From Candidatus Peregrinibacteria bacterium RIFOXYB2_FULL_33_20 (GTDB taxonomy: Bacteria > Patescibacteriota > Gracilibacteria > UBA1369 > GWF2-33-10), in contig MFXK01000021.1 of NCBI GenBank assembly GCA_001788835.1, positions 1-40,152 on the forward strand: a stretch of 40,152 nucleotides of DNA, in the 5' to 3' direction. Within the stretch, counting starts at the first letter, position 1. Each line of letters starts with the position of its first letter. A program made the translations under genes and the position numbers. This document shows positions 12,709 to 37,714 of this stretch, in pieces. A model generated the notes under the pieces. It had not been told where the DNA came from. It ran no database searches and was given only the letters and a program-made list of their open reading frames with translations.

Positions 12709-14451
12709 TTAATATACTTCTTTTGAATAACAATTGTCACAGCAGGTAATTTCTGGTCGGGAAGGCGCATAAGTAGTTTTAATTTTTTCTCCACATTTCA
12801 TACAATTTCTATCCCAGAGTTTTCTTGGGTTTCTGAGGGCAAGTCTTTCTTGGTGTCTTTGATCGGGGCATTTTTTAGGAACAGGTAAATTCATTTGTCG
12901 ATAAAAATTCAACTCTTGTGGGATGATTTTATAAAGTTTTCCTGTTATCTCACATCTTAAAATTGCATTAGAAATATCATCCTTCACATCTTGAATATTT
13001 TCTTGAATTTTATATTCAGGACCTTGATGTTGCGAAGATAAATCTTCATCTTTCCATTTGAATTTTTTTGCAATTGCCTGATCTTTTGTTAAATGGAAAT
13101 ATTCTTGAGCAATGCTTTCATTATAACCAAAAGTGGAGATTGATGACGGGAAGAACTCTCCAAATTCTGGGAACGAATCCCCTAAATCCCCTTTATCAAG
13201 GGGACTTTTTTGTCCCCCCTTGATAAAGGGGGCTAGGGGGATTGGTTTTTGCATTTGTTCAATAATTTTTGGTACCAAAATTTCATATTTCTCTTTAGTA
13301 TATTGTTTATTTAAAATGCAATAATTTTTATGTTTTAATCCAACACACCCGAAACAGTTATTGGTATTTTGTGTGCAATTTGAACAATAAAATAGGTTGT
13401 TTATTCCATCCCAACAAAGATAACAAAATGAATTAAATGAAGAATGATAAAATCCACTACATTCATATTGCATTTCACCATTTTCTCCAAAATCACTATC
13501 CATCGAATCTTTTATCTCTAACATTTGTGACATAAATTTAACATCCTCGCATTTTTCAGCATTAAAAGTAAAAAATGTATTTTTGGAATTAAAAATATAA
13601 TTGCCTGAAAAATTTTCATTATTTAACCCAACATAATATTTATGAGGAATTTTGAGCTTTAATTCATTTAGCTGTCTATCCATTTCTTTGATAATAAGGT
13701 GGTCGCTAAAATTAGTTTGATTAATGATTTTTTCATATTCATTTTTAGAATATTGTTTATTTAAAATACAAAATTCTTTTTGATTTAATCCAACGCACGC
13801 CAAACAATTATTTGAATTTGTGACTTCATAACAAAATCTTAAATTAAAAGAATTTGCACAATTTTGACAGTTCGAACAACTATATAATTTATCGCTATCT
13901 ATGCATTCATAGCAAAGTTCGGAATTTCGTAAAACTAAAGAATCAATACAATTTTTACAATTATATGGACTTCCATAAAAACAATCTTCACAATTAATTG
14001 ATCCGAAAATTAAATAGCAATTACGTGAAGTCCCAACAACATTACAAAAACTACAGTTTTCATTTTTATATGAAATTAAAGATTGATGTGGCGTTTTATC
14101 TCGTACTTCTTTAAATTGTTCGAAAAAAGATTTGTCGAAATTATATTCTTGTCCAGAATTTAATCCGTCCCATTTGTCAGAATACCATTCATCCTGTGAA
14201 TATACCGGAAACGGACATGATGAATGATACATCGAAATTATTTGTTTTCCTGTCATATCACATTTTCTGTGATATAAATTCCTTTCATTTCTGATTGCCA
14301 TTCTTCTTTGCTGTCTGCAACTTGGACAAAAAGTCGGAGCTGGAATTTGATATTTTTTACCATTAAAAACAGGTGAAATCTTGTCATAAAATTTCAGATC
14401 ATCAGTTGTGATTTCAAAATTTTGTTGGCAATTTTTGCAAGCTTTAAACAT
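12709..14451 (-). CDS. Cys-rich zinc-ribbon repeat protein, paralogue 1
   Basis: Unrecognised function. The N-terminus has a CxxC...CxxC zinc-binding pair (Cys5, Cys8, Cys42, Cys45) followed by R-rich QQRR and Cys64. A central region (about 115-390) is a dense array of C-x2-C and x-C-x-C motifs. It is divided in two by a helical linker, and each half ends with a near-copy of GLxxKxYCILNKQYxKEEYE. Then come an in-frame palindromic insertion (13176-13243), the block SSQHQGPEY, and a C-terminal ribbon NCMKCGEKIKTTYAPSRPEI...C-x2-C. No signal peptide or membrane helix is seen, so it is probably cytoplasmic. Multiple metal ions are a reasonable inference. The start is 10 bp downstream of the PLP-enzyme stop, so the two are likely co-transcribed. 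Confidence 0.85.
   Translation of the reverse strand: MFKACKNCQQNFEITTDDLKFYDKISPVFNGKKYQIPAPTFCPSCRQQRRMAIRNERNLYHRKCDMTGKQIISMYHSSCPFPVYSQDEWYSDKWDGLNSGQEYNFDKSFFEQFKEVRDKTPHQSLISYKNENCSFCNVVGTSRNCYLIFGSINCEDCFYGSPYNCKNCIDSLVLRNSELCYECIDSDKLYSCSNCQNCANSFNLRFCYEVTNSNNCLACVGLNQKEFCILNKQYSKNEYEKIINQTNFSDHLIIKEMDRQLNELKLKIPHKYYVGLNNENFSGNYIFNSKNTFFTFNAEKCEDVKFMSQMLEIKDSMDSDFGENGEMQYECSGFYHSSFNSFCYLCWDGINNLFYCSNCTQNTNNCFGCVGLKHKNYCILNKQYTKEKYEILVPKIIEQMQKPIPLAPFIKGGQKSPLDKGDLGDSFPEFGEFFPSSISTFGYNESIAQEYFHLTKDQAIAKKFKWKDEDLSSQHQGPEYKIQENIQDVKDDISNAILRCEITGKLYKIIPQELNFYRQMNLPVPKKCPDQRHQERLALRNPRKLWDRNCMKCGEKIKTTYAPSRPEITCCDNCYSKEVY
13176..13243. repeat. In-frame palindromic repeat in paralogue 1
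   Basis: AATCCCCTAAATCCCC, TTTATCAAGGGG, a loop, then CCCCCTTGATAAAGGGGG and an AGGGGGATT end: two nested inverted arms. It encodes PLAPFIKGG...SPLDKGDLGD on the minus strand. Copies at the same protein position are at 15983, 17821 and 19727. Confidence 0.9.
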
Positions 14452-14461
14452 GTTAAAAATT

Positions 14462-15481
14462 TTAAATTTTTACTTTTCCAGTATTAATAATTAATATTTT
14501 TTTATTTTTTGGAATAAATTTTTGCATTTGTAAAAACAATGCAAGTCCTGCTATTCCTGAAGCTTCACAAGTAATTTTCTGAGATTTAGCAATATTCATA
14601 GCTTCTTCCAAAAATTGTTCTTTTAATAAATATATATTAGTTTCATTTCCACAATAACCAGCATACTTATATAATCTTATCCATTGTTCATCAAAATGTA
14701 CAAAAGGCAAATGTGGAGAATATAATTTATCAGCTTTTGATTTTGGATTATTGGTGGTTGCACCACAAAAATTACATTTTCTTAAAATATCAATTTTCCC
14801 TTGAAACCTTGGATCATGAATTTGTTGTGAAACCTCTTTTCTATTAATATTTAAAATATTTTCAAATAAATTTCCTGTGCCAAAAGGAATCAAGCAATAA
14901 TCAGGTGAAAAATTAATAATTTCATAACTTAACCAATCATAAAATCTTGTAGTTGGAGCTAAAGCTTCACTAGATGTAATATCCAAGCCATTAGGATTGT
15001 GAGTTAAAAAGAGAATTTCTTGCCAATCAAATGCTTTTTTACTTAAGTCAGTTATATAAATTTCACAACCTAATTTTTCCATAGCAGTTATAATTTTTTT
15101 ATCAATGTTTGAATCAACTAATACTTTTAGATTTGGTAAATTATATTTTTTTAATTGAGTTTGAATAGCAATTGCGGCAGAACCAGAAGAAATAATTGAC
15201 ATTGCTGGAAGCTCTACTTTTAATTGTTCGATTTTTTTTGCAATCAAAAAATCTCTATAAGTGACAATAATTTCCCATGCCATACGATCTTTATGTGTAC
15301 CTGTTAAATTATAACTTTCATCCTTTACCCAAATGTTGGAAAATTCTGCAACTTTAATTTTATAAATAGGAGTTGCAGGAAATTTGGGATTATCTGCAGG
15401 AAATTCAGGTTTACTAGGATCATTTTCTGATGCCACAGTAATTGAGTTTAATATTTGTTCTTCTTTCTTAGTTAAAGTCAT
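14462..15481 (-). CDS. Fold-type II PLP-dependent enzyme (threonine synthase-like)
   Basis: Resembles the threonine synthase/cysteine synthase/dehydratase superfamily. The PLP lysine is Lys64 in NLTGTHKDRMA, equivalent to PTGSFKDR. A phosphate/substrate loop ISSGSAAIA (about 97-105), GTGNLF (201-206, cofactor glycines) and a terminal INTGKV follow in the canonical order. At 339 residues it is close to the length of the short members. It carries a CNFC pair (Cys236, Cys239) not typical of the fold, perhaps a metal site echoing its neighbours. The specific substrate cannot be read from the sequence. It lies inside the Cys-rich paralogue array, 40 bp after paralogue 2 and 10 bp before paralogue 1, and so is probably part of that transcription unit. 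Confidence 0.85.
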   Translation of the reverse strand: MTLTKKEEQILNSITVASENDPSKPEFPADNPKFPATPIYKIKVAEFSNIWVKDESYNLTGTHKDRMAWEIIVTYRDFLIAKKIEQLKVELPAMSIISSGSAAIAIQTQLKKYNLPNLKVLVDSNIDKKIITAMEKLGCEIYITDLSKKAFDWQEILFLTHNPNGLDITSSEALAPTTRFYDWLSYEIINFSPDYCLIPFGTGNLFENILNINRKEVSQQIHDPRFQGKIDILRKCNFCGATTNNPKSKADKLYSPHLPFVHFDEQWIRLYKYAGYCGNETNIYLLKEQFLEEAMNIAKSQKITCEASGIAGLALFLQMQKFIPKNKKILIINTGKVKI

Positions 15482-15521
15482 AATTAATTTTAAATATACT
15501 TTTAGTAATTAGCGATTAATA

Positions 15522-17261
15522 TTAATATAAAGATTCCAAATAGCATTTCTCGCAATACACAATCTCTGGTCGGGAAGGAGCGTAAGTAGTTATAATTTTT
15601 TCTCCACACTTCATACAATTTCGAGTCCAGAGTTTTCTTGGGTTTCGAAGAGCGGTTCTATTTTTTTGCCTTTGTTCAGGACATTTCCTAGGAATTGGTA
15701 AATTCATCTGTCTATAAAATTTTAGTTCTTGAGGAATAATTTTATAAAGTTTTCCTGTCGTGTCGCATGTCAAAATTGCATTACAAATATCATCTTTAAT
15801 GTCTTTGATGTTGTCTGAAATTTGATAATTTGGTCCCTGATGTTGTGAAGATAAATCTTCATTTTTCCAACTATATTTTTTTGCTAAAGCTTCATTTTTT
15901 GTTAATTGGAATTCTTCATTTGCAAGTGTTTCATTATAAGAAAATACGGAAATAGATATTGGGAAAAATTCTCCCCATTCACAATCCCCCAAGCCCCCTT
16001 TGTCAAGGGGGTGTCCAAGTCCCCTTGTTAAAGGGGATTTAGGGAATTTCATCGCTTCAATAATTTTTGGTACTAATTTTTCATATTCTTCTTTTGTATA
16101 TTGTTGATTTAGAATGCAATAACTTTTATGTTTTAAACTTATACAGCCAAAGCAATTATTACATGTAGTGCAATGATCACAGTAAATTAAATCACTACAA
16201 TCTCCCCAACATAAATTACAAAATTTAAGATTAAAAACATTATAACCACAAGCTTGTGATTCATAAATCATTTCGGCATTCATACCCCAATGGACATAAT
16301 CCATACAATTTTTCACATTACTTTCAAGTCTCATACAATACTTAACATCTTCGCAATCATAGCATTCATAACTTTCAAAAGTATTTTTACAATTGTTTAT
16401 AATATTACCACTTATATTTTCATTCTGACTGCCAAAATATTCTTTTACAATCATATTTTTCGTGAATTCTTTAAAATCAGATTTTGCTTTTTCTAATATT
16501 TTAAATGAACTTAAGTCTAAATTTTTTAAAATATTTTTATAATTTTCTTTTGTATATTGTTTGTTAAAAATATAGTAATTTTTGTTATGTAAATTTGTAC
16601 AAAAAATTGAATTTTGCGTGCCAATACAATTTTTAAGGAAATAACTGTCACTGCAATTTTTGCATTGTTGTGAAAATTTTAAATTATAACAGTCTTTGCA
16701 ATCAATACATTCATAACAAAGCTCGCCTTGCAGTAAACATTGATTGTCAATACAGTTTTTTGAATAATTTATCCATGAACCATAATAACAATCCTCACAA
16801 TGATTAGTGGAAAAAACCAAATAACAATTTTTATTTCTGCTTGCACAATTGCAATAATCACTATTTTCCATTGGCTTTTGTTGCTGTAAATTCATGCGAG
16901 GCACTTTGTTTCTTAATATTTCGAATTGCTCAAGAAATGATTTATTGAAATCAAAATTAATTCCATATGATAGAGGGTCCCATTTGTCGCTCCACCATGA
17001 ATCTATGTCATAAATAGGATAAGGTTTGTCTTGTGAAGCAGAAGATATAATCTCTTTCCCAGTCATATCACATTTTCTGTGGTATAAAAAACGTTCATTG
17101 CGATAACTAAGTCTTCTTTGCATTCTGCAACTTGGACAAAAAGTCGGAGATGGAATTTGATATTTTTTATTATTAAATACAGGTGAAATTTTGTCATAAA
17201 ATGTTAGATCTTCGTTACTGATTTCAAAAGTATCGCCGCAGTTTTTACAATTTGTTTGCAT
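15522..17261 (-). CDS. Cys-rich zinc-ribbon repeat protein, paralogue 2
   Basis: Same architecture as paralogue 1: intact N-terminal CKNC...CPSC pair and RKCDMTGKEI, two Cys-rich halves, two KQYTKE-type segments, the palindromic insertion (15983-16048), SSQHQGPNY and the C-terminal CMKCGEKI...CEKC ribbon. The central part differs most in sequence (EYFGSQNENISGNIINNCKN). The insertion is the most diverged of the four (TRGLGHPLDKGGLGD). The start is the ATG directly before the conserved TNCKNC. The upstream 86 bp are filled by a pair of inverted 24-bp hairpins, so this gene may start a new transcript or rely on readthrough from paralogue 3. Confidence 0.85.
   Translation of the reverse strand: MQTNCKNCGDTFEISNEDLTFYDKISPVFNNKKYQIPSPTFCPSCRMQRRLSYRNERFLYHRKCDMTGKEIISSASQDKPYPIYDIDSWWSDKWDPLSYGINFDFNKSFLEQFEILRNKVPRMNLQQQKPMENSDYCNCASRNKNCYLVFSTNHCEDCYYGSWINYSKNCIDNQCLLQGELCYECIDCKDCYNLKFSQQCKNCSDSYFLKNCIGTQNSIFCTNLHNKNYYIFNKQYTKENYKNILKNLDLSSFKILEKAKSDFKEFTKNMIVKEYFGSQNENISGNIINNCKNTFESYECYDCEDVKYCMRLESNVKNCMDYVHWGMNAEMIYESQACGYNVFNLKFCNLCWGDCSDLIYCDHCTTCNNCFGCISLKHKSYCILNQQYTKEEYEKLVPKIIEAMKFPKSPLTRGLGHPLDKGGLGDCEWGEFFPISISVFSYNETLANEEFQLTKNEALAKKYSWKNEDLSSQHQGPNYQISDNIKDIKDDICNAILTCDTTGKLYKIIPQELKFYRQMNLPIPRKCPEQRQKNRTALRNPRKLWTRNCMKCGEKIITTYAPSRPEIVYCEKCYLESLY
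15983..16048. repeat. In-frame palindromic repeat in paralogue 2
   Basis: AATCCCCCAAGCCCCC, TTTGTCAAGGGGG, loop, CCCCTTGTTAAAGGGG and TTTAGGGAATT. The arms are more diverged than in the other copies but still pair over most of their length. Confidence 0.85.
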
Positions 17262-17270
17262 AGTTTGAAT

Positions 17271-17338
17271 GTCATTCCTGTGGAAACAGGAATCTTAATT
17301 TATATATGAAACGAGATTCCCGTTTTCACGGGAATGAC
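17271..17338. repeat. Inverted pair of 24-bp ATTCC hairpins
   Basis: GTCATTCCTG...CAGGAATC (17271-17294) and GATTCCCG...CGGGAATGAC (17315-17338) are copies in opposite orientation, separated by 20 bp. Each has its own stem and the pair can also fold onto each other. They occupy nearly the whole gap between paralogues 3 and 2 and may act as a terminator or RNA-processing site; function is inferred. Confidence 0.85.
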
Positions 17339-17347
17339 AGCTGCCAT

Positions 17348-19087
17348 TTAATATACTTTCTCCAAATAGCACTTTTCGCAATAAATAATTTCTAATCGTT
17401 CAGGAGCGTAAGTAGTTTTAATATTACTCCCACATTTCAGGCAATTTCTATCGTATAACACAAATGGATTTCTATTAAGAAGTCGGAGTCTATATCTTTC
17501 TTGCGGACATTTTCTTGGTATTGGGATTTTTTGTTCTCGATAGAATTTCAGTTCATGAGGAATTATTTTATATAATTTATTTGTTGATTCACATTTCAAA
17601 ATTGCCTCTTTGATATCATCTTTCACATCATTAATATTGTCTGGAATAATATATTCAACTCCTTGATGTTGATAACTTGCATCTGGGTCTTTCCAAACAT
17701 ATTTTTTGGCTAGAGTTTCTTCTTTGGTTAATGGACAATAATCATAAGCAACAGAATCATTATAAGGGAATGGAGACATTGAAATTGGGAAAAATTCGCC
17801 CCACTCGGGCTGCAAATCCAAATCCCCTAAATCCCCTTTATCAAGGGGACTTGTCGATCGCCCCCTTGATAAAGGGGGATGGGGGGATTGCATCGATTCA
17901 ATAATTTTTGCTACTAATTTTTCATACTCTTCTTTTGTATATTGTTTATTAAAAATACAGTATTCTTTATGTTGAAGTCCTGAACATCCAAAACAGTTTT
18001 TTGAATTAAAACAATTACTGCAATACCACATGTTGCTTGAATAAAAAACGTATGTACAAAAATGAATATTGTAAGTTTCAAGTGTGCCCATCACTTCATA
18101 TGAAAGTTCTGGCTTGATATACATATTTGAACAATCCAGGCAGTCTTTTATTTTGACTCCAACTTGTATGTATTTAGAATCTTCAGAGTCGTTCATTTCA
18201 TAACAATCAATACAGTTTTTACAATTATTAATAAAATCGCCAGTACAGTTTTCGCAGTTAATTATGGTTGCATATTTATAGATTCTTTTAAGCCTTAAAT
18301 CATCAAACATTTTTTTTGCGACAGTAAAATTTTGATAACTTCCAACAAATTCTTTTACTCTGTTTTCATATTCTTCTTTTGAAAGTTGTTGATTGAAAAA
18401 ATGATATTTTTTGCCAACAAGATTTGTACAAAGGAAACAATTTTGACAGTTTTTACAGTCATCGCAAAACCAGCAATCAATTATATTTTGTGAATAATAA
18501 ACGAATTTGCAGTTATATCCATTCCTAACGTTAAAGCATTCATACATTAATTCCGAGTCATAAATAAAAGCACAATCAATACAGTTTTTTGAACTTTGAA
18601 TTAATTTGCCATAATAACAATCTTCACAATATTCAGAAGAATTTATTAAATAACAATTTTTACACATTCCTGTACCACAGGTATAATCACAATTTTCACA
18701 TTTCATATTTATCATGGCAACTTTTGGAACTTTTTTATTTAAATGCTCAAATTGTTCGAAAAAATTTTTATTAAAATTAAAATCCTGACCATAGCTAAGA
18801 GCATCCCATTTGTCAGAAAAAAATTCTTCTTGAGAATATATTTTATATTCGCTGTCTGATCTATAAATAGAGATTAAAGGTTTTCCGCTTAATGCTGATT
18901 TGTTATGATGATATACGTTTTCATTTCTATGGCCAGTTCTTCTCCTTATTCTTTCTTCTGGACATATTGTTGGTGGTGGAATTTGAAAAAATTTGCCATC
19001 AAAAGTTGGTGAAATTTTTTTTAGAAATTCTAGATCGCTATCTGTAACTTCGAATTTTTGATTGGTGATTTTGCAGGTTTGAAACAT
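17348..19087 (-). CDS. Cys-rich repeat protein, paralogue 3, degenerate N-terminal zinc site
   Basis: The same overall plan and the same 579-residue length as paralogue 2, but the N-terminal zinc site has decayed. Cys8 is Thr, Cys45 is Glu (CPEE instead of CPSC) and Cys64 is Ser, leaving only Cys5 and Cys42. The central arrays are as Cys-dense as in the others (CDDCKNCQNCFLC), although the first KQYTKEEYE segment reads FFNQQLSKEEYE. The C-terminal ribbon CLKCGSNI...CEKC is intact. It carries the palindromic insertion at 17821-17889. The ATG is preceded by a pyrimidine-rich leader (minus-strand sense) and the TAGTCAG hairpin at 19115. This copy could be specialised rather than dead, since the frame and length are fully kept. 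Confidence 0.85.
   Translation of the reverse strand: MFQTCKITNQKFEVTDSDLEFLKKISPTFDGKFFQIPPPTICPEERIRRRTGHRNENVYHHNKSALSGKPLISIYRSDSEYKIYSQEEFFSDKWDALSYGQDFNFNKNFFEQFEHLNKKVPKVAMINMKCENCDYTCGTGMCKNCYLINSSEYCEDCYYGKLIQSSKNCIDCAFIYDSELMYECFNVRNGYNCKFVYYSQNIIDCWFCDDCKNCQNCFLCTNLVGKKYHFFNQQLSKEEYENRVKEFVGSYQNFTVAKKMFDDLRLKRIYKYATIINCENCTGDFINNCKNCIDCYEMNDSEDSKYIQVGVKIKDCLDCSNMYIKPELSYEVMGTLETYNIHFCTYVFYSSNMWYCSNCFNSKNCFGCSGLQHKEYCIFNKQYTKEEYEKLVAKIIESMQSPHPPLSRGRSTSPLDKGDLGDLDLQPEWGEFFPISMSPFPYNDSVAYDYCPLTKEETLAKKYVWKDPDASYQHQGVEYIIPDNINDVKDDIKEAILKCESTNKLYKIIPHELKFYREQKIPIPRKCPQERYRLRLLNRNPFVLYDRNCLKCGSNIKTTYAPERLEIIYCEKCYLEKVY
17821..17889. repeat. In-frame palindromic repeat in paralogue 3
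   Basis: AATCCCCTAAATCCCC, TTTATCAAGGGG, loop TTGTCGATCG, CCCCCTTGATAAAGGGGG and ATGGGGGGATT. Nearly identical to the copy in paralogue 4; encodes PPLSRGRSTSPLDKGDLGD. Confidence 0.9.
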
Positions 19088-19114
19088 AGGGGGAAGTGTG
19101 AAGGAGGGAGGAAC

Positions 19115-19210
19115 GATGTAGTCAGTAGTCGGAAGTCAGTTCGAACTGACCACTGACTACTGACCACTGACTACTGACCACTGACCACTGACTACTGACC
19201 ACTGACTACA
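19115..19210. repeat. Dispersed TAGTCAG-type hairpin, copy 2 (expanded)
   Basis: GATGTAGTCAGTAGTC, a central CAGTTCGAACTG, then about ten tandem CTGACTAC/CTGACCA units. The right arm is expanded compared with copies 1, 3 and 4. It is intergenic between paralogues 4 and 3. It has tandem units but no spacers, so it is not a CRISPR. Confidence 0.85.
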
Positions 19211-19253
19211 AATGTCTTCCCTAAAGATTATGGGCAGGCCAGAATGACAATGA

Positions 19254-20990
19254 TTAATAGACATTTTCCAAATAACATTTCTCGCAATAAACAATTTCTG
19301 GGCGGTCAGGTGCATAAGTAGTTTTAATTTTTTCTCCGCATTTCATACAATTTCGATCAAAAAGTTTTCTTGGATTTCTGAGGGCAAGTCTTTTTTGATG
19401 TCGGATGTCAGGGCATTTCTTTGGAATCGGCAAATTCATTTGTCTGTAAAACTTCAATTCCTGAGGGATGATTTTATAAAGTTTAGATGTTGCTTCACAT
19501 TTTAAAATCGAATCACAAATTTCATCCTTCACATCTTTTATATCTTCTGGAATTTGATATTCAGGGCCTTGATGTTGCGAAGATAAATCTTCATCTTTCC
19601 ATTTATAACCTTTTGAAAGTGCTTGTTCTTTGGTTAAGGGAAAATATTCTTGTGCAACCGTTTCATTATAACAAAAAGGAGAGATTGAAGATGGAAAAAA
19701 TTCTCCCCATTCGGACTGCAAAGACAAATCCCCTAAATCCCCTTTATCAAGGGGACTATCCGATCTCCCCCTTGATAAAGGGGGATGGGGGGATTGCATT
19801 GATTCAATAATTTTTGGAACTAATTTTTCATATTCCTCTTTGCTGTATTGTTTGTTTAGAATGCAATACTGTTTATTTTTTAAACCAACACATCCAAATA
19901 AATTTTTTGATGAATAGCATGAATCGCAGTACATTGCTTCATGAACACGATTACAAAATTTTGTAAAAAGCAGTCTGGAATTTTGATATGAACTAATATA
20001 TTCACAGCAAAGTTCATTTTCTTCAGTATAATTATTGTCATAACAGTCTTTGAGATTAACAACCTGAGTACAATATGCACAATCTTGAGATTTATCAGTA
20101 TAATAAGAGTCTTTTATATTTTTGGATTCATATACATAATTTCCACTTACATTTTCCACTTGATTGCTTTGCATATATTTATGTGGGACTCTTAATTTAA
20201 GTTCATTTAATTTTTCTTTAATAATTTCATGAGATTTTTTTATGCATAAATTTAATTCATTTTTCATTTTTTGAAATTCCTCTTTTGAAAATTGTTGATT
20301 AAAAATACAATTTTTTTTATTTCTCAAACCCACGCATCCTATGCAATCAGAACAACTTTGAAGATCATAACAATAAATTAAATTATTGCAATTAGTGCAG
20401 TCCTGGCAATAAAAACTTTGATAAAGTTTTCTACAATCTGTGCATTCATAACAAAATTCACATTCTCGAACAAGAAGAGTATCAACGCAGTTTTTTGAAT
20501 AATAAGGCGATCCATAAAAACAATCTTCACTATAAACTGATCCAAAAATCAGATAAGAATTTTTTACATTCCCAGCATAATTGCAAAAATTGCTATTTTC
20601 CGAGAACCAAACAGAAAGTGCTAATTGAGGTACATCTTGATAAAGTTTTTTGAATTGATTGAAAAAAGATTCATTAAAATTAAATTCTCTCCCATATTCA
20701 GAAGCGTCCCACTTGTCTGACCACCAAAATTCATTTTCATATATTTTTATTCCTGTATCTTGATTCAAATTAGAAATTAACTGTTTTCCTGTTTTACTAC
20801 ATTTTCGGTAATACAAATTTCTTTCATTTCTAAAAGTGAATCTTCTTTGTCTTCTGCAACTCGGACACAAAGTCGGAGCTGGAATTTGATATTTTTTATC
20901 ATTAAAAACAGGAGAAATTTTGTCGTAAAATTTCAAATCAACATCAGTAATTTCAAAGGATTCGCCGCAGTTTTTACAGGTTTGGAACAT
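19254..20990 (-). CDS. Cys-rich zinc-ribbon repeat protein, paralogue 4 (first of the array)
   Basis: 578 residues with, by my count, about 39 Cys (roughly one in fifteen). N-terminal CKNC...CPSC pair and RKCSKTGK are intact; two Cys-rich halves end in KKNCIFNQQFSKEEF and KQYCILNKQYSKEEYE. The palindromic insertion (19727-19795), SSQHQGPEY and the C-terminal CMKCGEKI...CEKC ribbon follow. The N-terminal segment FYDKISP...CPSCRRQRR...RNERNLYYRKC and the C-terminal segment FYRQMNLPIPKKCPDIRHQK...RNPRKLFDRNC look homologous, suggesting that the protein arose by internal duplication. It is the upstream gene of the minus-strand set. A promoter candidate lies at 21234-21264 and a TAGTCAG hairpin lies between promoter and gene. 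Confidence 0.85.
   Translation of the reverse strand: MFQTCKNCGESFEITDVDLKFYDKISPVFNDKKYQIPAPTLCPSCRRQRRFTFRNERNLYYRKCSKTGKQLISNLNQDTGIKIYENEFWWSDKWDASEYGREFNFNESFFNQFKKLYQDVPQLALSVWFSENSNFCNYAGNVKNSYLIFGSVYSEDCFYGSPYYSKNCVDTLLVRECEFCYECTDCRKLYQSFYCQDCTNCNNLIYCYDLQSCSDCIGCVGLRNKKNCIFNQQFSKEEFQKMKNELNLCIKKSHEIIKEKLNELKLRVPHKYMQSNQVENVSGNYVYESKNIKDSYYTDKSQDCAYCTQVVNLKDCYDNNYTEENELCCEYISSYQNSRLLFTKFCNRVHEAMYCDSCYSSKNLFGCVGLKNKQYCILNKQYSKEEYEKLVPKIIESMQSPHPPLSRGRSDSPLDKGDLGDLSLQSEWGEFFPSSISPFCYNETVAQEYFPLTKEQALSKGYKWKDEDLSSQHQGPEYQIPEDIKDVKDEICDSILKCEATSKLYKIIPQELKFYRQMNLPIPKKCPDIRHQKRLALRNPRKLFDRNCMKCGEKIKTTYAPDRPEIVYCEKCYLENVY
19727..19795. repeat. In-frame palindromic repeat in paralogue 4
   Basis: Same arms as the copy at 17821, differing mainly in the loop (ATCCGATCT). 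Encodes PPLSRGRSDSPLDKGDLGD. Confidence 0.9.
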
Positions 20991-23198: not shown

Positions 23199-24854
23199 AT
23201 GATTTTATCTCAAATTACAAAACATTTTGTGCAAGAAGCTTTGAAACGAAAAATCTTGAATATTAATGATTTGCAAAAGTTAAAGAATGAATTTTCGAGC
23301 AAGTACAAAATTAAAAGTCTGCTTAATCGGGAGTTAATTTTAGCGTATAAAAAAATTGTTCAAGAAAAGTCAGATTTAAAAAGTTTATCTTTTGAAAGAG
23401 TGATTCGTAAAAGATCAGTGCGTACTGAATCTGGTATCACTTCCGTCACAATTGTTACTAAACCTTATGCCTGTCCCGGTAAATGCGTGTTTTGTCCTAC
23501 TGAAAAAGGCATTCCTAAGAGTTATGCCTCGAATGAGCCTGGTATTATGAGGGCAATTTTGAACGATTTTGACCCGAAACGCCAGGTAAAGAACAGATTA
23601 CAGGCTTATATCGGTAATGGACATACGGCTGATAAGGTGGAAATGATTATTTTGGGAGGCACTTTTTCGTTTTATCCACATCGATATCAAACGGACTTTG
23701 TGAGAAAAATGTATGAAGCCCTGAATGAGGGGTTAGGAGCTAAAATGAAAGATGAAAAATGTAAAATTGAAAATGTAGGCTCTAAAATGGCGAAAACATT
23801 GCAAAAAGCACAGGCCTTAAATGAAAAAGCAGAGCATAGATGTGTAGGGTTATCAGTGGAAACTCGACCTGATTATATTACCGAGAAAGAGCTTTTAAGA
23901 TTTAGGAAATTAGGAGTAACCCGTATTGAAATTGGTGTTCAGCATACTGTGGATAGGATTTTAACTTTTAATAAAAGAGGGCATGATATTGGGGCGGTTA
24001 AAGATGCGATGAGATTGATGAAAGACGCTGGTTTCAAAATCACTTCCCATTTGATGCCTAATTTGCCGGGAGCAACTATTACTGAAGATTATCAAATGTT
24101 TTTGGATGTTTTCAATGATCCAGATTTAAGAACTGATTGGTTGAAAATTTATCCTTGCAGCGTGGTGCCTTTTTCTGAATTGGAACAGTGGTTTAAGCAA
24201 GGCAGGTATCAGTCTTATGAACAACAAGATTTGATTGATTTATTAATTAGGGTGAAGCAAATTGTACCGCTATATATTCGTATTACCAGATTAATTCGCG
24301 ATATTCCTGATACTAGCATTTTGAGTAGCGCTAGCGTATCTAATTTAAGGCAAGAAATTCATCAAATTATTAGTAAAAATCAATCGAAATTTCAAATGTG
24401 CCAATGTATCAGGTGTAGGGAAATCAGATCAGCTGAAGTTAATTTAGCAAAAACTGAATTAAATATTTTGGAATATGAGGCTCAAGGAGGAAAAGAGTTT
24501 TTTATCAGTATTGATGATATGAGTCAAAATAAGTTATGCGCTAATTTGCGCCTTAGATTCCCTTCTCAGTATTTTTCCAGACAAAAGCATTTTATTAAGG
24601 AATTGGAAGGAGCGGCTTTGATACGAGAGTTACATGTGTTTGGTAATGAAAGTAGCATTGGCAGCAATCAAAGAGGATTGGCACAACATAAAGGTTTTGG
24701 AGGACAGCTTTTGCAACAAGCTGAGTTAAAGGCAAAACAGGCTGGTTTCTCAAAAATTGCCGTTATTAGCGGTATCGGGGTGCGAGAATATTATCGAAAA
24801 AATGGTTACCACTTGGAGGGTAGTTATATGTTGAAAGTTTTGCGTAAATCATAA
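23199..24854 (+). CDS. elp3: Elp3-type tRNA uridine(34) acetyltransferase (radical SAM + GNAT)
   Basis: Adds a carboxymethyl group to the wobble uridine of tRNA, using acetyl-CoA and a radical SAM cluster. The 551 residues show the complete layout: an N-terminal basic helical tRNA-binding part; Cys92, Cys96 and Cys99 in ACPGKCVFCP binding the iron-sulphur cluster; GGTFSFYP; VETRPDYI; TRIEIGVQH; HLMPNLPG; and the extra Cys motif CQCIRCREIR. The C-terminal GNAT domain (LHVFGNESSIGS, GFGGQLLQQAELKA, YYRKNGYHLEGSYM) completes it. The family is best known from eukaryotes and archaea but also occurs in some bacteria. The 3' end overlaps the convergent RSH gene by 6 bp. A possible tRNA-modification partner is the divergent methyltransferase. 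Confidence 0.95.
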   Translation: MILSQITKHFVQEALKRKILNINDLQKLKNEFSSKYKIKSLLNRELILAYKKIVQEKSDLKSLSFERVIRKRSVRTESGITSVTIVTKPYACPGKCVFCPTEKGIPKSYASNEPGIMRAILNDFDPKRQVKNRLQAYIGNGHTADKVEMIILGGTFSFYPHRYQTDFVRKMYEALNEGLGAKMKDEKCKIENVGSKMAKTLQKAQALNEKAEHRCVGLSVETRPDYITEKELLRFRKLGVTRIEIGVQHTVDRILTFNKRGHDIGAVKDAMRLMKDAGFKITSHLMPNLPGATITEDYQMFLDVFNDPDLRTDWLKIYPCSVVPFSELEQWFKQGRYQSYEQQDLIDLLIRVKQIVPLYIRITRLIRDIPDTSILSSASVSNLRQEIHQIISKNQSKFQMCQCIRCREIRSAEVNLAKTELNILEYEAQGGKEFFISIDDMSQNKLCANLRLRFPSQYFSRQKHFIKELEGAALIRELHVFGNESSIGSNQRGLAQHKGFGGQLLQQAELKAKQAGFSKIAVISGIGVREYYRKNGYHLEGSYMLKVLRKS

Positions 24855-27146
24855 TTTTTTTATTCGGTCTTTTTCTTTGCTATAAATAAAATATAGCCGA
24901 CTATATAATAAAACTATGCCTAATAAAAATAAAATAGTAAATATTTGTAGTTTAAAAATAATGATCTCAGCTATCGCCACTATTAGGCCCAAAACACTCA
25001 TAATCAAAGAAGCTAGCCAGATTTGACCCATTTTGTTTTTTTCCGCTAGCGTGATACTGAACAATCTTTCGTTTACTAAAGTAAAAATATAAATAATTAC
25101 TAAAGAAGTATAAGGTAGAATGATGTAAAAAAATGGATGATTTGGGGTGACATAAGTAATGACATACTTAATGACAAAGGGGTGAATTGCTAATAAGCTA
25201 AATATTAAAATAAAACCAAGAATAAGCAACACACTTCTGTAGGGAGTCATTCGTTCGATTCTTCTGACCATTGGCACATTGGCGATGCTTTCCATAATTT
25301 GCCTGATTTGTTTTATATCTTGAATTTTGGCGTAGATTTTAATTTCTGCTTCTGATTTTTGTAGCAAACTTTCTGTGCCTAATATTTTCGTTATATTAAT
25401 ATCTAATTCTTTAAAAATTTTTAAACAATCAATACATACGCCAACAGAGTTATCGATAATTATTTTAAATTTCACATTATATTCATGAATTTTACTTTTA
25501 TTGATTTGATCAATAACTTCATTTGGATTTAATTTTCCCTCGCCGATTGCAATATATAGATCTTCTAAACTGCTATATGGAGAGCTGTTGAGAAATTTTT
25601 TAAAGGTAGAGCTGGATATGCTGGCTAAATTAAGGCCTTTGCTTAGATATAGTTCCTTTTGGAATCTTTCTTTGCCCATTAAAATTTGTTTTTCTTTTGA
25701 TTCTTGATTTATGGCCTCTTTTATTTTACGTTTTGCTAAACTTGTTTGAGTGTAGTCAAGCCATGTGCTACTGGGATGATTTTCTTTGTTGGTGATGATT
25801 TTTACTGTGTCTCCTGATTTAAGGGTGGTATTGATGTTGACTTCAAAATCATTAATTTCTGCTTTTTCAGCATGATCACCTATAGCAGAATGGATGGCAT
25901 AGGCTAAATCAATACAGGTGGCGTTTTTCGGTAAATCAATTACGTCGCCATTGGGAGTGAATACAAAAATTCTATCTTGAAAAATATCGAATTTAAGTTG
26001 TTCAATTATTTTGGAATGAGGATCACTGAATTGTTTTTTTAATTCTAATATTTTTGTGGCCCATTGTTTTTTGGATTTGTGGGCAATCGATAAATCTTTA
26101 TCATGTCCATATGAATAAAAATAATGAGCCGCTATGCCATATTCCGCTTCTAAGTGCATGCTTAAAGTTCTGATTTGAAATTCAGTGGGCAGCCCATGTA
26201 GACCAAAGACAGCGGTGTGAAGGCTCTGATAGCCATTAGCTTTTGGCAGGGCAATATAATCCTTGATCTTATATGGTTTTGGGGTGAATAAATTATGGAT
26301 AATGCCAAGCATTTTATAGCAGTCAGGAACTGTTTCGCAAATTACCCTAACTCCAATTAGATCAGATATGCCCCTGAAACTATAATTTTTTCTTTGTAGT
26401 TTTTTGTAAATAGAGTAGGTATTTTTTTGTCGGCCCTGGAGGTCCACAATTTTGATGTGTTGTTTTTTTGTCGCTTCATTAATTTTTTTTATGGTTTTTT
26501 GTAGATAGAAATTAGAGTTTTTTTGGTTTTCGTTCAATTTAGCGACAATAGAGTTATATTGTTGCGGTTGTAAAGTTTTAAAGCATAAATCCTCTAATTC
26601 GTTTTTTAATTCCCATACGTTTAATAAATTGGCGATTGGTACATAGATTTCCATCGTTTCTTTAGCAATTCTTAGCACTTTTTCAGGTTTGTCAATGTAA
26701 TCGATGGTATGCATATTATGCAATCTATCTGCTAGTTTGATTAAAATTACTCTAATGTCTTTAGCGCTGTGGATGAGAAGTTTTTTTAAAGATTCAATTT
26801 GCCTTTCGGCCATGTTATTGCGGTAATGGACTTTTGATAATTTGGTGATGCCTTTGACCAAGAACCCCACTTCTTCGCCGAATTGTTTTTTAATAACTGA
26901 TAAATTGATAGTGGTGTCTTCAGGAACATCATGTAGTAAAGCGGCAATAATAGTATCTTCATCGACGTGCAAAGTCGTAAGATTTAAGGCGGTTTCCAGG
27001 GGATGGGAAATGTAATCTTCTCCTGATTTGCGTTTTTGCCCGAAGTGAGCTAATTGAGCAAATTTATAAGCACGTTTAATCTTCTCCTCATTACAGTTGG
27101 GATTATATTTTTTGATGCGGTCGATAAGAGCGGTGATCGTTGACAT
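24849..27146 (-). CDS. Bifunctional RelA/SpoT (p)ppGpp enzyme with C-terminal membrane domain
   Basis: Domains in order: hydrolase HD domain (His34, His48, His72-Asp73, Glu76-Asp77 in GQKRKSGEDYISHP and LLHDVPEDT); synthetase (SIYKKLQRKNYSF, DLIGVRVICE, DYIALPKANGYQSLHT, TEFQIRT); TGS (IFVFTPNGDVIDLPKNAT); helical part; and an ACT domain (about 555-632, FKIIIDNSVGVCIDCLKIF). Catalytic residues of both activities look intact, so it should make and degrade (p)ppGpp. Unusually, residues about 633-765 add four strong hydrophobic helices (about 638-660, 672-692, 709-730, 733-755), which would anchor the enzyme in the membrane. Classical RSH proteins end after ACT. There is no frameshift, and the extension keeps the reading frame and composition. 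Convergent with elp3, with a 6-bp overlap. Confidence 0.93.
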   Translation of the reverse strand: MSTITALIDRIKKYNPNCNEEKIKRAYKFAQLAHFGQKRKSGEDYISHPLETALNLTTLHVDEDTIIAALLHDVPEDTTINLSVIKKQFGEEVGFLVKGITKLSKVHYRNNMAERQIESLKKLLIHSAKDIRVILIKLADRLHNMHTIDYIDKPEKVLRIAKETMEIYVPIANLLNVWELKNELEDLCFKTLQPQQYNSIVAKLNENQKNSNFYLQKTIKKINEATKKQHIKIVDLQGRQKNTYSIYKKLQRKNYSFRGISDLIGVRVICETVPDCYKMLGIIHNLFTPKPYKIKDYIALPKANGYQSLHTAVFGLHGLPTEFQIRTLSMHLEAEYGIAAHYFYSYGHDKDLSIAHKSKKQWATKILELKKQFSDPHSKIIEQLKFDIFQDRIFVFTPNGDVIDLPKNATCIDLAYAIHSAIGDHAEKAEINDFEVNINTTLKSGDTVKIITNKENHPSSTWLDYTQTSLAKRKIKEAINQESKEKQILMGKERFQKELYLSKGLNLASISSSTFKKFLNSSPYSSLEDLYIAIGEGKLNPNEVIDQINKSKIHEYNVKFKIIIDNSVGVCIDCLKIFKELDINITKILGTESLLQKSEAEIKIYAKIQDIKQIRQIMESIANVPMVRRIERMTPYRSVLLILGFILIFSLLAIHPFVIKYVITYVTPNHPFFYIILPYTSLVIIYIFTLVNERLFSITLAEKNKMGQIWLASLIMSVLGLIVAIAEIIIFKLQIFTILFLLGIVLLYSRLYFIYSKEKDRIKKL

Positions 27147-28569: not shown

Positions 28570-29811
28570 TTAAATAGCTAGAAATTGATTTTCCAAGCTA
28601 GCGGCGATGCTGGCAATTTGAGCTAAAGTGTAATAAATTTTTTTTAAGTGTTCAGGCTGTATGTCTTCTTGATTGGCATTGTTATAAACCAAAATTTCAT
28701 GGAAACAGAGCTTGGAAAAGCTCATTCCTTTGGAATTTAAATTTTCTTTGTCATTTTTTCGATCATTTAAACGAAAAAACCCGCCAATCGGCTCATTATT
28801 GACCAAATAAATTACCGGTTCAGCAATAAATTGTTTATACCTATCGACAGTTTGGATACCTTCCTGAATAATTACTTTGTGGATTTTTTGACTACCTTTG
28901 CCTACACTTAATTTATTTCTTTGTTTCCGATTCATATTTAAAAATTCTTGCACACTATTAAAGCTTTCTACTCCAATTCCATATGTTCCAGAGGCATTTT
29001 TGATAAAGATATACGGTTCTAGGTTAATGCTGTATTCGTTAAATTTTTTTTTGGTTAATTTTATAATATTATTTATAACCTCAGCAATTTGAGATACTCC
29101 TTGTTTGCTTTGGAAATCAATTTCTTCTACTAATTCAGATATGGGATAAAATAACCAAGGGTCAAGATCCAACAGCTCCGCAAATTCTGTAATTAGCTGT
29201 TGGTAAAAAATTATGTTGTTTATTTTGTTTCTTTTGAACCAGCCCAGTTGAGGGTTGGGAATGATAGGCTGGTCAATATTTAATAAAATATAAGGGATGT
29301 GATTGGAAAAATCATTATTGGAGATTATCAAATCAGGGATAAAATTAGAAATAGTGCTTAAAGTGTTTTGGCTTTTTTTTAATTTATGCAAAATCAACTG
29401 ATCTTTGTCATTAATTTTGACCTGCTGTTGTTCTCCAAAGTTATCAAGATTATGTCCGATTAAGGTTTCAAAGCCAGCTTCTATTAAAATATTTTGAAGA
29501 TGCAGTAAGTTTTCGAAATAAAATAAATTTTTAGTGTGAGATTCAGGAAAAATTAGGATTTTTTTTGCTTGAGAATAATGCTTGTTTAGATAGTTTTTGA
29601 AAGCTTGACTGGCTGATCTAGAATATTTAGGGCAGATATTATTCCAGCCTGCCGGAAAAATGTTTACATCAATAGCCGCGATTTTGAAGCCACTGTTCCT
29701 TAAATCTACCGAGCTATATATCAATCCTGGTAAATTTGCCGTTTTTTTAAAAAGCCAATTTTGAATTTTTTCTTCATTATCAATGAATTTTTGCTGAAAA
29801 AATTTTAACAT
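28570..29811 (-). CDS. gshA: Glutamate-cysteine ligase, GshA type III
   Basis: Matches the proteobacterial/ferrooxidans-type glutamate-cysteine ligase family (Pfam GshA), which makes gamma-glutamylcysteine, the first step to glutathione. Recognisable blocks are SVDLRNSGFKIAAIDVNIFP, PAGWNNICPKYS, the loop PNPQLGWFKRNK, FIKNASGTYGIGVESF (ATP-grasp-like glycine motif), QEGIQTVDRYKQFIAEPVIY and GGFFRLNDRK. At 413 residues it is close to the family length. No glutathione synthetase (gshB) is visible in the window, so the product might be gamma-Glu-Cys or a related ligation product. It is the fourth gene of the dnaX unit, 21 bp after ruvB. Confidence 0.8.
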   Translation of the reverse strand: MLKFFQQKFIDNEEKIQNWLFKKTANLPGLIYSSVDLRNSGFKIAAIDVNIFPAGWNNICPKYSRSASQAFKNYLNKHYSQAKKILIFPESHTKNLFYFENLLHLQNILIEAGFETLIGHNLDNFGEQQQVKINDKDQLILHKLKKSQNTLSTISNFIPDLIISNNDFSNHIPYILLNIDQPIIPNPQLGWFKRNKINNIIFYQQLITEFAELLDLDPWLFYPISELVEEIDFQSKQGVSQIAEVINNIIKLTKKKFNEYSINLEPYIFIKNASGTYGIGVESFNSVQEFLNMNRKQRNKLSVGKGSQKIHKVIIQEGIQTVDRYKQFIAEPVIYLVNNEPIGGFFRLNDRKNDKENLNSKGMSFSKLCFHEILVYNNANQEDIQPEHLKKIYYTLAQIASIAASLENQFLAI

Positions 29812-35194: not shown

Positions 35195-37714
35195 ATGATA
35201 GTTAATATCAATAAATTGTTTAATATCCATTCTAATGAGTGGCCGCGAGTGGGGGCGTCGTGGATTTTGGGTCTGTTGGTAAGGGTCAGTTATGTGATTG
35301 CATGGACGGTAGTTATGGTGATTTTTATCAGCCGACTAGGTGTAAATTCTTTAGTGGTTTTGTTCCTTTTGAATGCCGTGAGTATTATGTTTGGAAGTTT
35401 GATATATAGTGCGTTAATTAAGAAATTTTCAGGTAAAAGTATTACTTTGTTTACGGCTTTATGCGGATCACTGTCATTCGCAGGTAGTTATTTTTTGGCG
35501 GATAATAAGAATTTGGAATGGTTATTTTTGACGGTGATGATTGTTAGCATTTCAGTGTTTTTATCTCAATTAGGAATTTTGATCAACATCTTTATAGAAG
35601 AACTTTTTACACCTTTGGAGAGTCAAAGGACATTCCCGGTGATTGAGTCTTATGAAGTTGTCGGAGGAGTGGTTGGTGGTTTTATTATTACGGAATTGTC
35701 ATCCAAAGCGAATTTAAGTTTTTTTATTGCTTTAATTGCCGTGTTATTGATCGCTTTACTGGTGTTATTTAAATATTTTTATTTATATGCTAAAGAAATT
35801 CCTTTTTTGAATTTTCATCATGAGAAATTAAAAAAATCGTCCAAAATTTTTCAAATTAAAGATAGTTTGACAGTCGTGAATAAGCATCCTTTTACGAAAC
35901 TTTTGGCTGTCGCGGTTATTTTTCAATTTGTTTTGTTCACTTTTGTGGAGTTTCAATTTGCGAAAGGGGTGGAATTAGATTTGGAACAACAGGGAAGCCA
36001 TCAGGAAGATCTCACTTTTAAGCCCGAACATTTAGCGGTGTCTTTAATGCACGCCGATACCCTTAATGTGCAAGAGAATGTTGGTCAAGAACTTGAGTCT
36101 AATCTGCATGAAAGAGCTACCGCTGAAACCGCTACTTCAACCCCGACTGAACAGGATGTAGCTCATGTGTTCGGTTTAATTATGATGATTGCCAGTATTT
36201 CCACTTTTCTTTTGGAAATGTTTTTCTCTAGCAAAGTATTGAAAAAATTAGGAGTGATCAAAAGCATGATGGTTCATCCGATTGTATTAATGATCAATGG
36301 AATGATTCTAGGTTTGCGATTTGGTTTTGTTTCTGCCAGTAATCTGAAAATTTGGTTTGAAGGGACAAATAGCATTTATTTAAATGCTTATAATGCTTCT
36401 TATTATAATTTGCATGAAGAAGATCGGGCTACGGTAAAGGAGTTTTTTGACGGCATCATGAAACCGTTTGGCATTATTATGGCAACTTTAACCATTTGGG
36501 CCGTTTATAAATTTTTTCCAAGTGGTATTGCTGTTTTATATATTAATATGGCTCTCATTTTATCAGCTTTTATTTTGTTTTTACTCTTGATTAAAGTTAA
36601 AGAAAAATATACAGATCTGTCTTTGCATCATCTTAAACTATCCGATAATGATTTAGCCACTAAACTTAATGCGGTGGAAATTTTATCTCAACATGGACAT
36701 AGAAATATTGTGGCTGATTTGGCACAAGAATTATTCAAAGATAATTTACATGAAAGATTAAAGGTAAAATTGTTAGCGGCTATGGGATATATTGGATATC
36801 CAGTGTGTTTACAGTATATTTTGAAATTTCTTGATGATAATTCCTATCAGGTCAGGTTAGCGAGTATTTACGCTTTAAAAAATTTTATTAAGCGCACTAA
36901 AAAGATTTTTTCCAAACCTTTTACTATCCATCAAATCACCACGAGATTAAAGATAATGTTTAAGATTGAAAGTGATTCTGTGATAAAGATGTTGATAACC
37001 AAAGCTCTTTTTCAGCTGAAAGAGCCAAAAGTCACTGAATTAATTTTGGAAGCTTTAAATGAAGCGCATGATTTAGATATTACGGCCAGCACTATTAATA
37101 TTTGTAAAATTTTTAAAGATGAAGTTTTGGCTCATCATTTGGAAATATTTTTGAAGCATAAGGATATCAGAATCAGAACTAACGCGATCACCGCTCTTTG
37201 GAATTTACCCGAGTATAGAGAAAATTTAGCTGTGGAGTTAATTAATATGTTTAACGCCAAAGATAGAAATACTTTGATATCGGCATTTTTTATTGCTGGT
37301 GAGACTAAGGCTCAAGAAACAAAAGATTTTTTGAAAAATTATTTAAAGTCTAATGATTTAGAGTTAAGGGTAAATTCGGCCTTAGCTTTGGCGAAAATGG
37401 AAGATCCTGATTGTCTTAAGGAAATTGTAAAATTATTGACTCATGAAAAGCCTGAAATTGCCAAACAAATGAAACAGGCGTTATTGGCAGTAAAACCAAA
37501 GTTTAAATGGCTGATTGAAAAAAATTTGAGTAGTGAGCTCTATCGTAAAATAAATAAAATTTTAGAAAATTATAAAAATAAAAATATTAGCAATATCCCC
37601 TGCAATGTTTTGTTGCGCCTTAAAGTTTATTATGAAATAGCTGATCATTTTGAAGAAGCCTTAAGGATTGAAAGATTTTTAAATTCCAAACAAAACCCTT
37701 TAGCAATTACTTGA
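35195..37714 (+). CDS. MFS-like membrane protein fused to HEAT repeats
   Basis: 839 residues. The first half has about ten to twelve hydrophobic helices. A long acidic soluble loop (about 265-325, HQEDLTFKPEH and neighbours) interrupts them. The first helices and the EWPRV start resemble the nucleotide transporter (Npt/ATP-ADP exchange) and MFS-like families known to be fused to HEAT repeats. The second half (about 480-800) is an alpha-solenoid of HEAT-type pairs, e.g. KLLAAMGYIGYPVCLQYIL, YQVRLASIYALKNF, IRIRTNAITALWNLPEY and LELRVNSALALAKMEDP. These probably form a cytoplasmic protein-binding arm. The substrate cannot be deduced. It is followed 37 bp later by queA, which may be co-transcribed. 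Confidence 0.75.
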   Translation: MIVNINKLFNIHSNEWPRVGASWILGLLVRVSYVIAWTVVMVIFISRLGVNSLVVLFLLNAVSIMFGSLIYSALIKKFSGKSITLFTALCGSLSFAGSYFLADNKNLEWLFLTVMIVSISVFLSQLGILINIFIEELFTPLESQRTFPVIESYEVVGGVVGGFIITELSSKANLSFFIALIAVLLIALLVLFKYFYLYAKEIPFLNFHHEKLKKSSKIFQIKDSLTVVNKHPFTKLLAVAVIFQFVLFTFVEFQFAKGVELDLEQQGSHQEDLTFKPEHLAVSLMHADTLNVQENVGQELESNLHERATAETATSTPTEQDVAHVFGLIMMIASISTFLLEMFFSSKVLKKLGVIKSMMVHPIVLMINGMILGLRFGFVSASNLKIWFEGTNSIYLNAYNASYYNLHEEDRATVKEFFDGIMKPFGIIMATLTIWAVYKFFPSGIAVLYINMALILSAFILFLLLIKVKEKYTDLSLHHLKLSDNDLATKLNAVEILSQHGHRNIVADLAQELFKDNLHERLKVKLLAAMGYIGYPVCLQYILKFLDDNSYQVRLASIYALKNFIKRTKKIFSKPFTIHQITTRLKIMFKIESDSVIKMLITKALFQLKEPKVTELILEALNEAHDLDITASTINICKIFKDEVLAHHLEIFLKHKDIRIRTNAITALWNLPEYRENLAVELINMFNAKDRNTLISAFFIAGETKAQETKDFLKNYLKSNDLELRVNSALALAKMEDPDCLKEIVKLLTHEKPEIAKQMKQALLAVKPKFKWLIEKNLSSELYRKINKILENYKNKNISNIPCNVLLRLKVYYEIADHFEEALRIERFLNSKQNPLAIT

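What the first reader, a model, noticed from the sequence alone, without database searches (positions are those of the whole stretch)
24849..27146. RelA/SpoT enzyme with a four-helix C-terminal membrane anchor
The HD, synthetase, TGS and ACT domains look intact, but residues 633-765 add four hydrophobic helices. Standard RSH proteins are soluble and end after ACT. Anchoring would place (p)ppGpp metabolism at the membrane and could couple it to an envelope signal instead of, or besides, the ribosome.
Basis: partly seen in the sequence, partly recalled or inferred. Interest (0 to 1): 0.7.

Follow-up and report, generated by a model that had tools for sequence, protein, structure and literature searches.

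The report
Membrane-anchored stringent-response enzyme in Gracilibacteria
In a large group of tiny, mostly uncultured bacteria, the enzyme predicted to destroy the starvation alarm molecule (p)ppGpp ends in a conserved four-helix membrane domain, and in relatives it is fused to, or encoded beside, a membrane transporter, so alarm control appears to have moved to the cell membrane.

Summary
The gene lies on the minus strand, 24849-27146. It encodes a 765-aa long RSH (HD, synthetase, TGS, helical, ACT) plus a tail of four predicted membrane helices.

The tail is no artefact. It occurs in 69 of 89 genomes of the order, in uninterrupted RSH frames where the frame is complete. All 46 tails analysed fit an N-in/C-in four-helix topology, with conserved W..HP and E residues on the predicted outer side.

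The window's genome has a second, soluble RSH with a ZFD, an intact synthetase and a destroyed hydrolase. The membrane RSH therefore holds the only recognisable intact (p)ppGpp hydrolase found there. Across the class, membrane RSHs always keep the hydrolase (91 of 91), while the synthetase was lost repeatedly.

Relatives fuse the RSH to an EamA/DMT transporter. In the order, the matching stand-alone EamA subfamily occurs in five genomes, each time directly after the tailed RSH. The window's genome lacks that partner.

Best reading: a membrane-anchored, SpoT-like (p)ppGpp hydrolase/synthetase whose balance is probably set by a membrane or nutrient cue. Anchoring is strongly predicted; the signal is inferred. 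I found no earlier description in the open literature I could search.

The parts
24849..27146 (-). Whole gene: 765-aa long RSH with four-helix membrane tail
26613..27071 (-). HD (p)ppGpp hydrolase domain, residues 26-178; all eight checked catalytic residues present (R39, H48, H72, D73, E76, D77, D140, N144)
   Evidence: Pfam HD_4; residue table
26106..26435 (-). Synthetase domain, residues 238-347; 10 of 10 checked residues present (among them R239, K241, D262, Y306, E322)
   Evidence: Pfam RelA_SpoT; residue table
25791..25970 (-). TGS domain, residues 393-452, with H419 aligned to B. subtilis Rel H420 (tRNA 3' end contact)
   Evidence: Pfam TGS; alignment to 6yxa; PMC7058999
25488..25736 (-). 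Helical (AH) domain, residues 471-553; followed directly by ACT, so the ZFD/CC domain is absent
   Evidence: weak partial AH_RIS match; helices 469-548 in the model
25251..25484 (-). ACT/RRM domain, residues 555-632
   Evidence: Pfam ACT_4; beta-alpha-beta pattern 556-633
25149..25244 (-). Membrane helix 1, residues 635-666; carries H655-P656 of the conserved W..HP motif (this protein has L652 where 40/43 relatives have W)
25050..25136 (-). Membrane helix 2, residues 671-699
24957..25040 (-). Membrane helix 3, residues 703-730, with conserved E727 at its predicted outer end (41/46 relatives)
24855..24938 (-). Membrane helix 4, residues 737-764, with a basic, predicted cytoplasmic C-terminus

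Best explanation
This is the SpoT-like member of a two-RSH system in which (p)ppGpp breakdown has been moved to the membrane. A soluble, ZFD-bearing, RelA-like paralog with a dead hydrolase would make (p)ppGpp at starved ribosomes. The window protein, without a ZFD, is held in the cytoplasmic membrane by four helices with both ends inside. It carries the only recognisable intact (p)ppGpp hydrolase found in the genome, and a synthetase that looks intact. A change at the membrane domain (a ligand at the outer-side W..HP/E site, transport, or membrane state) is transmitted through the adjoining ACT domain and shifts the HD/synthetase balance. Predicted from sequence: domain order, membrane helices, topology, active-site residues, the paralog's broken hydrolase, conservation, and the fusions and neighbours in relatives. 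Inferred: membrane location in the cell, enzyme activity, the direction of control, and the signal.
For: Tail conserved in 69/89 genomes of the order, 50/62 of high quality. Four helices with N-in/C-in charge bias in 46/46 tails. No ZFD. The genome holds only two RSH proteins; the other has R39S, D73E, E76P and D77N in its hydrolase (window numbering), an intact synthetase and a ZFD. Membrane RSHs keep HD motifs in 46/46 (4TM), 31/31 (EamA) and 14/14 (4TM+EamA), while the synthetase is lost in 12/46, 31/31 and 14/14; ZFD paralogs keep the synthetase in 34/34 and HD in only 10/34. On the tree, the synthetase state changes at least 8 times among membrane rows, while HD is intact in all 72 of them. 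RSH-EamA fusions. The partner EamA subfamily occurs in 5/89 genomes of the order, always directly after the tailed RSH.
Against: No experiment; the host group is mostly uncultured. The window's genome lacks the partner EamA subfamily, so the transporter link is not direct for this protein. About a fifth of the order lacks the tail, and soluble ZFD-less forms nested in the tailed clade suggest the tail can be lost. The TGS histidine is retained in 35/46, so tRNA sensing may persist. An independent-pairs test of membrane location against activity motifs had too few pairs to be informative. The window protein lacks the W of W..HP and the P of the FP loop motif. The tail model matches no solved structure.
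Confidence: 0.62

Rival explanations
1. The tail is a passive anchor. It concentrates (p)ppGpp turnover at the membrane but carries no signal; regulation comes from the ACT/TGS domains or soluble partners.
For: Tail sequence is only 11-25% identical to the window tail across relatives, and it can be lost. Membrane location alone could serve local GTP/(p)ppGpp control.
Against: A passive anchor would not need near-invariant polar residues on the outer side (H 39/43, P 38/43, W 40/43, E 41/46), a fixed four-helix form, or a dedicated transporter partner fused or adjacent in relatives.
Confidence: 0.25
2. Control runs outwards: the RSH reads (p)ppGpp or GTP and gates a transporter, with the 4TM tail as the docking or transporter-like subunit. 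Hydrolysis is secondary.
For: RSH-EamA fusions in which the synthetase is destroyed but the HD pocket kept. Partner EamA directly downstream in 5/5 genomes that have it. Weak profile similarity of the tail to both ends of EamA.
Against: The metal-binding and catalytic HD residues are intact in 91/91 membrane RSHs, which suggests hydrolysis and not only binding. The window's genome has no such EamA. In the window's genome the enzyme would be the only hydrolase.
Confidence: 0.15
3. Artefact: a frameshift, misassembly or chance fusion of an unrelated membrane gene.
For: None found.
Against: Same architecture in uninterrupted frames across many genera and assemblies (50 of 67 genera carry the tail).
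Confidence: 0.01
4. Still a ribosome-controlled Rel whose tail only brings membrane-bound ribosomes and enzyme together.
For: The TGS histidine is kept in the window protein (H419) and in 35/46 tailed RSHs; the ACT/RRM domain is present.
Against: The ZFD, whose conserved cysteine and arginine mutations impair 70S binding in B. subtilis Rel (PMC7058999), is absent, and nearly all genomes examined carry a separate ZFD-bearing paralog.
Confidence: 0.1

Closest known systems
SpoT of Beta-/Gammaproteobacteria (e.g. A. baumannii SpoT, PDB 7qpr)
   Same: Long RSH paired with a RelA-type synthetase; keeps the hydrolase, and the synthetase may be lost; regulated by non-ribosomal partners such as acyl carrier protein (PMC9974481).
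   Different: SpoT is soluble and ends after ACT. The window protein lacks the ZFD and ends in four membrane helices. The two RSH types here form their own groups on a tree of Gracilibacteria and nearby RSHs; E. coli RelA and SpoT were not in that tree.
Bifunctional Rel (B. subtilis, PDB 6yxa)
   Same: Best sequence and fold match for HD-synthetase-TGS-helical; catalytic residues shared.
   Different: Rel has a ZFD and no membrane tail, and is the ribosome-bound sensor; here those roles appear to belong to the soluble paralog.
Plant RSH1 (Arabidopsis)
   Same: Long RSH for which C-terminal transmembrane segments were once proposed (811-827 and 848-864), with the CC domain not conserved (PMC5633626, PMC3153485).
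   Different: A chloroplast protein with two putative segments of uncertain status; no four-helix domain and no transporter partner described.
EamA/DMT transporters (PF00892)
   Same: Fused to RSH in relatives (Pfam hits in L263, L221, L222); tail helices 1-2 and 3-4 weakly resemble the two ends of EamA.
   Different: The window tail scores no Pfam family above cut-off and its model matches no solved DMT structure.

Membership tests
Long RSH (Rel/RelA/SpoT) | HD + synthetase + TGS + ACT in order | tested here: met
   Pfam, all four above cut-off; TIGR00691 above cut-off
Long RSH (Rel/RelA/SpoT) | Full six-domain form including the CC/ZFD domain | tested here: not met
   Helical domain runs straight into ACT; rare RSHs without CC are known (PMC3153485), so this is not a defining feature of the wider family
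Bifunctional RSH | Intact hydrolase and synthetase active-site residues | tested here: met
   8/8 HD and 10/10 synthetase residues; activity itself not testable here
Ribosome-bound Rel/RelA | ZFD for 70S binding plus TGS His for the tRNA end | tested here: not met
   ZFD absent; TGS His H419 present
SpoT role (hydrolase partner of a hydrolase-dead RelA) | Paralog with dead hydrolase and intact synthetase in the same genome | tested here: met
   G000:C5 paralog; only two HD_4 and two RelA_SpoT proteins in the 96%-complete genome
Integral membrane protein | Multiple conserved TM helices obeying the positive-inside rule | tested here: met
   (hydropathy, model and charge; no dedicated topology program was available)
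EamA/DMT transporter (tail) | Sequence match to PF00892 | tested here: not met
   EamA is not among the Pfam matches listed for 21 tails, and the window tail reaches no family's cut-off
EamA/DMT transporter (tail) | Profile similarity or shared fold with DMT proteins | tested here: inconclusive
   hhalign best P 1e-3 to 1e-13 depending on the EamA set, against reversed controls of 0.006 or more; no fold match in the PDB

The most novel reading that the evidence does not exclude
Gracilibacteria evolved a transporter-coupled stringent response. RSH hydrolases are physically joined to EamA-type transporters, or to a four-helix domain derived from one, so that passage or binding of a nutrient at the membrane directly sets (p)ppGpp breakdown, independently of the ribosome.
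Probability: 0.3. Interest if true: 0.9.

Novelty: new variant of a known kind. Interest (0 to 1): 0.74.

Why it matters
Long RSH enzymes are understood as soluble, ribosome-linked sensors; how non-amino-acid nutrient states reach SpoT/Rel has long been open. A whole clade in which the hydrolase is built into the membrane, and in relatives into one polypeptide with a transporter, gives a directly testable case of membrane or nutrient input into (p)ppGpp. It also fits organisms thought to live by scavenging nutrients from others, and offers a fusion protein that could be expressed, purified and assayed.

Tried and rejected
Frameshift, misassembly or accidental fusion: rejected by conservation across the order. 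Tail as a known Pfam family: the window tail reaches no cut-off. Tail matching a solved structure: no sequence hit of note and no fold hit. Tail simply a shrunken EamA: profile evidence is suggestive but rests on few sequences, and fold evidence is absent, so not claimed. EamA neighbour as a general feature: rejected; present in only 5/89 genomes and absent from the window's genome. Tail across the whole phylum: rejected; outside the class no listed RSH frame exceeded about 760 aa. Membrane location causing hydrolase retention: not provable from the tree. Naming the organism through close relatives: the first scan found nothing; a second gave Peregrinibacteria/Peribacteria/Gracilibacteria labels for relatives. 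Literature: eight searches found no description of membrane-integral long bacterial RSHs or RSH-EamA fusions, but only open-licence papers were searchable.

Full report
What is there. The ORF at 24849-27146 is on the minus strand and encodes 765 residues. Pfam finds HD_4 (26-178), RelA_SpoT (238-347), TGS (393-452) and ACT_4 (555-632), all above cut-off, and a weak partial helical/AH hit at 471-553. The helical domain runs straight into ACT, so the conserved-cysteine/zinc-finger (ZFD) domain is missing. All eight hydrolase and ten synthetase residues checked are intact. Solved relatives are B. subtilis Rel (6yxa), SpoT (7qpr) and ribosome-bound RelA.

The tail. Residues 633-765 contain four hydrophobic peaks. 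AlphaFold2 gives four helices directly after the last ACT strand, in the full-length model and, with 46 aligned tails, at pLDDT 88. Mean K+R counts are 3.2 before helix 1, 1.1 in loop 1, 4.0 in loop 2, 0.4 in loop 3 and 3.1 at the C-terminus; in 46 of 46 tails the inside exceeds the outside. With the enzyme in the cytoplasm, both ends are inside. The conserved W..HP (outer half of helix 1) and E727 (end of helix 3) then lie towards the outer side. The window protein has H655, P656 and E727, but L instead of W at 652.

Distribution. A profile of the tail finds it in 69 of 89 genomes of the order (50 of 62 of high quality; 50 of 67 genera), within RSH frames of about 770-870 aa where the frame is complete. 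In a phylum sample every strong tail hit lay in the same order. Outside the class, no listed RSH frame exceeded about 760 aa. The tail is thus an old, order-wide feature.

Two RSHs per genome. The window's genome (96% complete) has exactly two RSH proteins by three searches. The other one (G000:C5, 720 aa) has a ZFD and an intact synthetase, but its hydrolase has R39S, D73E, E76P and D77N (window numbering). The membrane RSH is therefore the only recognisable intact (p)ppGpp hydrolase found, the position SpoT holds in E. coli. Across Gracilibacteria the pattern repeats. Tailed RSHs: hydrolase motifs intact 46/46, synthetase 34/46. Soluble ZFD paralogs: synthetase 34/34, hydrolase 10/34. On a FastTree phylogeny the ZFD paralogs form one clade (support 100), and most tailed RSHs form another (99) with a few soluble, ZFD-less members nested inside, best read as tail loss. 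Within membrane forms the synthetase state changed at least eight times, whereas the hydrolase is intact in all 72 rows. A test of membrane location against activity had too few independent pairs to be informative, so this is a pattern and not a proof of cause.

Link to a transporter. Searching the class with one long relative found two further architectures, mainly in family f18 of the same class: RSH fused directly to about ten membrane helices (31 proteins, 910-1014 aa) and RSH-4TM plus about ten helices (14 proteins, 1083-1269 aa). In several, the large membrane part is EamA by Pfam (L263 58 bits, L221 34.9, L222 30.3); others are recognised by alignment only. All these fusions keep the hydrolase motifs and have lost the synthetase motifs. 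The 4TM segment of the second type is related to the window tail (hhalign P 4e-7 against reversed controls of 0.006 or more). In the window's order, the EamA subfamily nearest the fused domain occurs in five of 89 genomes, and in all five it is the gene directly after the tailed RSH (positions compared). That combination of fusion and exclusive adjacency argues for a functional unit. The window's genome has no member of that subfamily, so for this protein the link is evolutionary. Whether the 4TM tail itself descends from EamA is open: profile similarity at both ends is suggestive, but no fold match was found.

Mechanism. Most likely the soluble ZFD paralog makes (p)ppGpp at starved ribosomes and the membrane enzyme degrades it, with some synthesis of its own. 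The membrane domain adjoins ACT, the regulatory domain in long RSHs, so a change in it could shift the HD/synthetase balance. Loss of the ZFD, whose mutation impairs 70S binding in B. subtilis Rel (PMC7058999), fits a non-ribosomal input; the retained TGS histidine (H419) leaves room for tRNA sensing. Predicted from sequence: domains, residues, topology, conservation, paralog division, fusions and neighbours. Inferred: localisation, activities, direction of signalling and ligand.

Novelty. Classical long RSHs are described as HD-synthetase-TGS-helical-CC-ACT (PMC3153485), and that paper's text does not contain the word transmembrane. Plant RSH1 was once proposed to have two C-terminal segments (PMC5633626). 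SpoT is a soluble hub bound by acyl carrier protein (PMC9974481). I found no description of membrane-integral bacterial long RSHs or RSH-transporter fusions, within an open-licence library only. I file it as a new variant of the long RSH family.

Noticed in passing
L223:7305-10616 (G035): A 1103-aa RSH with intact hydrolase and synthetase, a 4TM tail and a further ~300-aa C-terminal domain without a Pfam match (methyltransferase-like by eye), in the same locus as a second ZFD-less RSH of 644 aa.
   Followed up: partly
L129:1646-4897, L263:304-3654, L254:107-3601, L221:3642-6416, L222:3809-6640: RSH-EamA and RSH-4TM-EamA fusion proteins in Gracilibacteria; all have an intact HD motif and a degraded synthetase.
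   Followed up: yes
window 23199-24854 (+): Radical SAM protein (PF04055 and PF16199), Elp3-like by eye, whose 3' end overlaps the convergent 3' end of the RSH gene by six bases.
   Followed up: no
window 35195-37714 (+): 839-aa protein with an MFS-like membrane part (just below the Pfam cut-off) and C-terminal HEAT repeats.
   Followed up: no
window 12709-20990 (-): Four ORFs of nearly equal length (578-580 aa) on the same strand, possibly paralogs; not compared.
   Followed up: no
window 28570-29811 (-): Glutamate-cysteine ligase (GshA, PF08886) in a small-genome Patescibacteria relative.
   Followed up: no
G547, G577, G538, G544: RSH genes of some families in the class contain 8-12 in-frame TGA codons, as expected if those lineages read TGA as an amino acid.
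   Followed up: no
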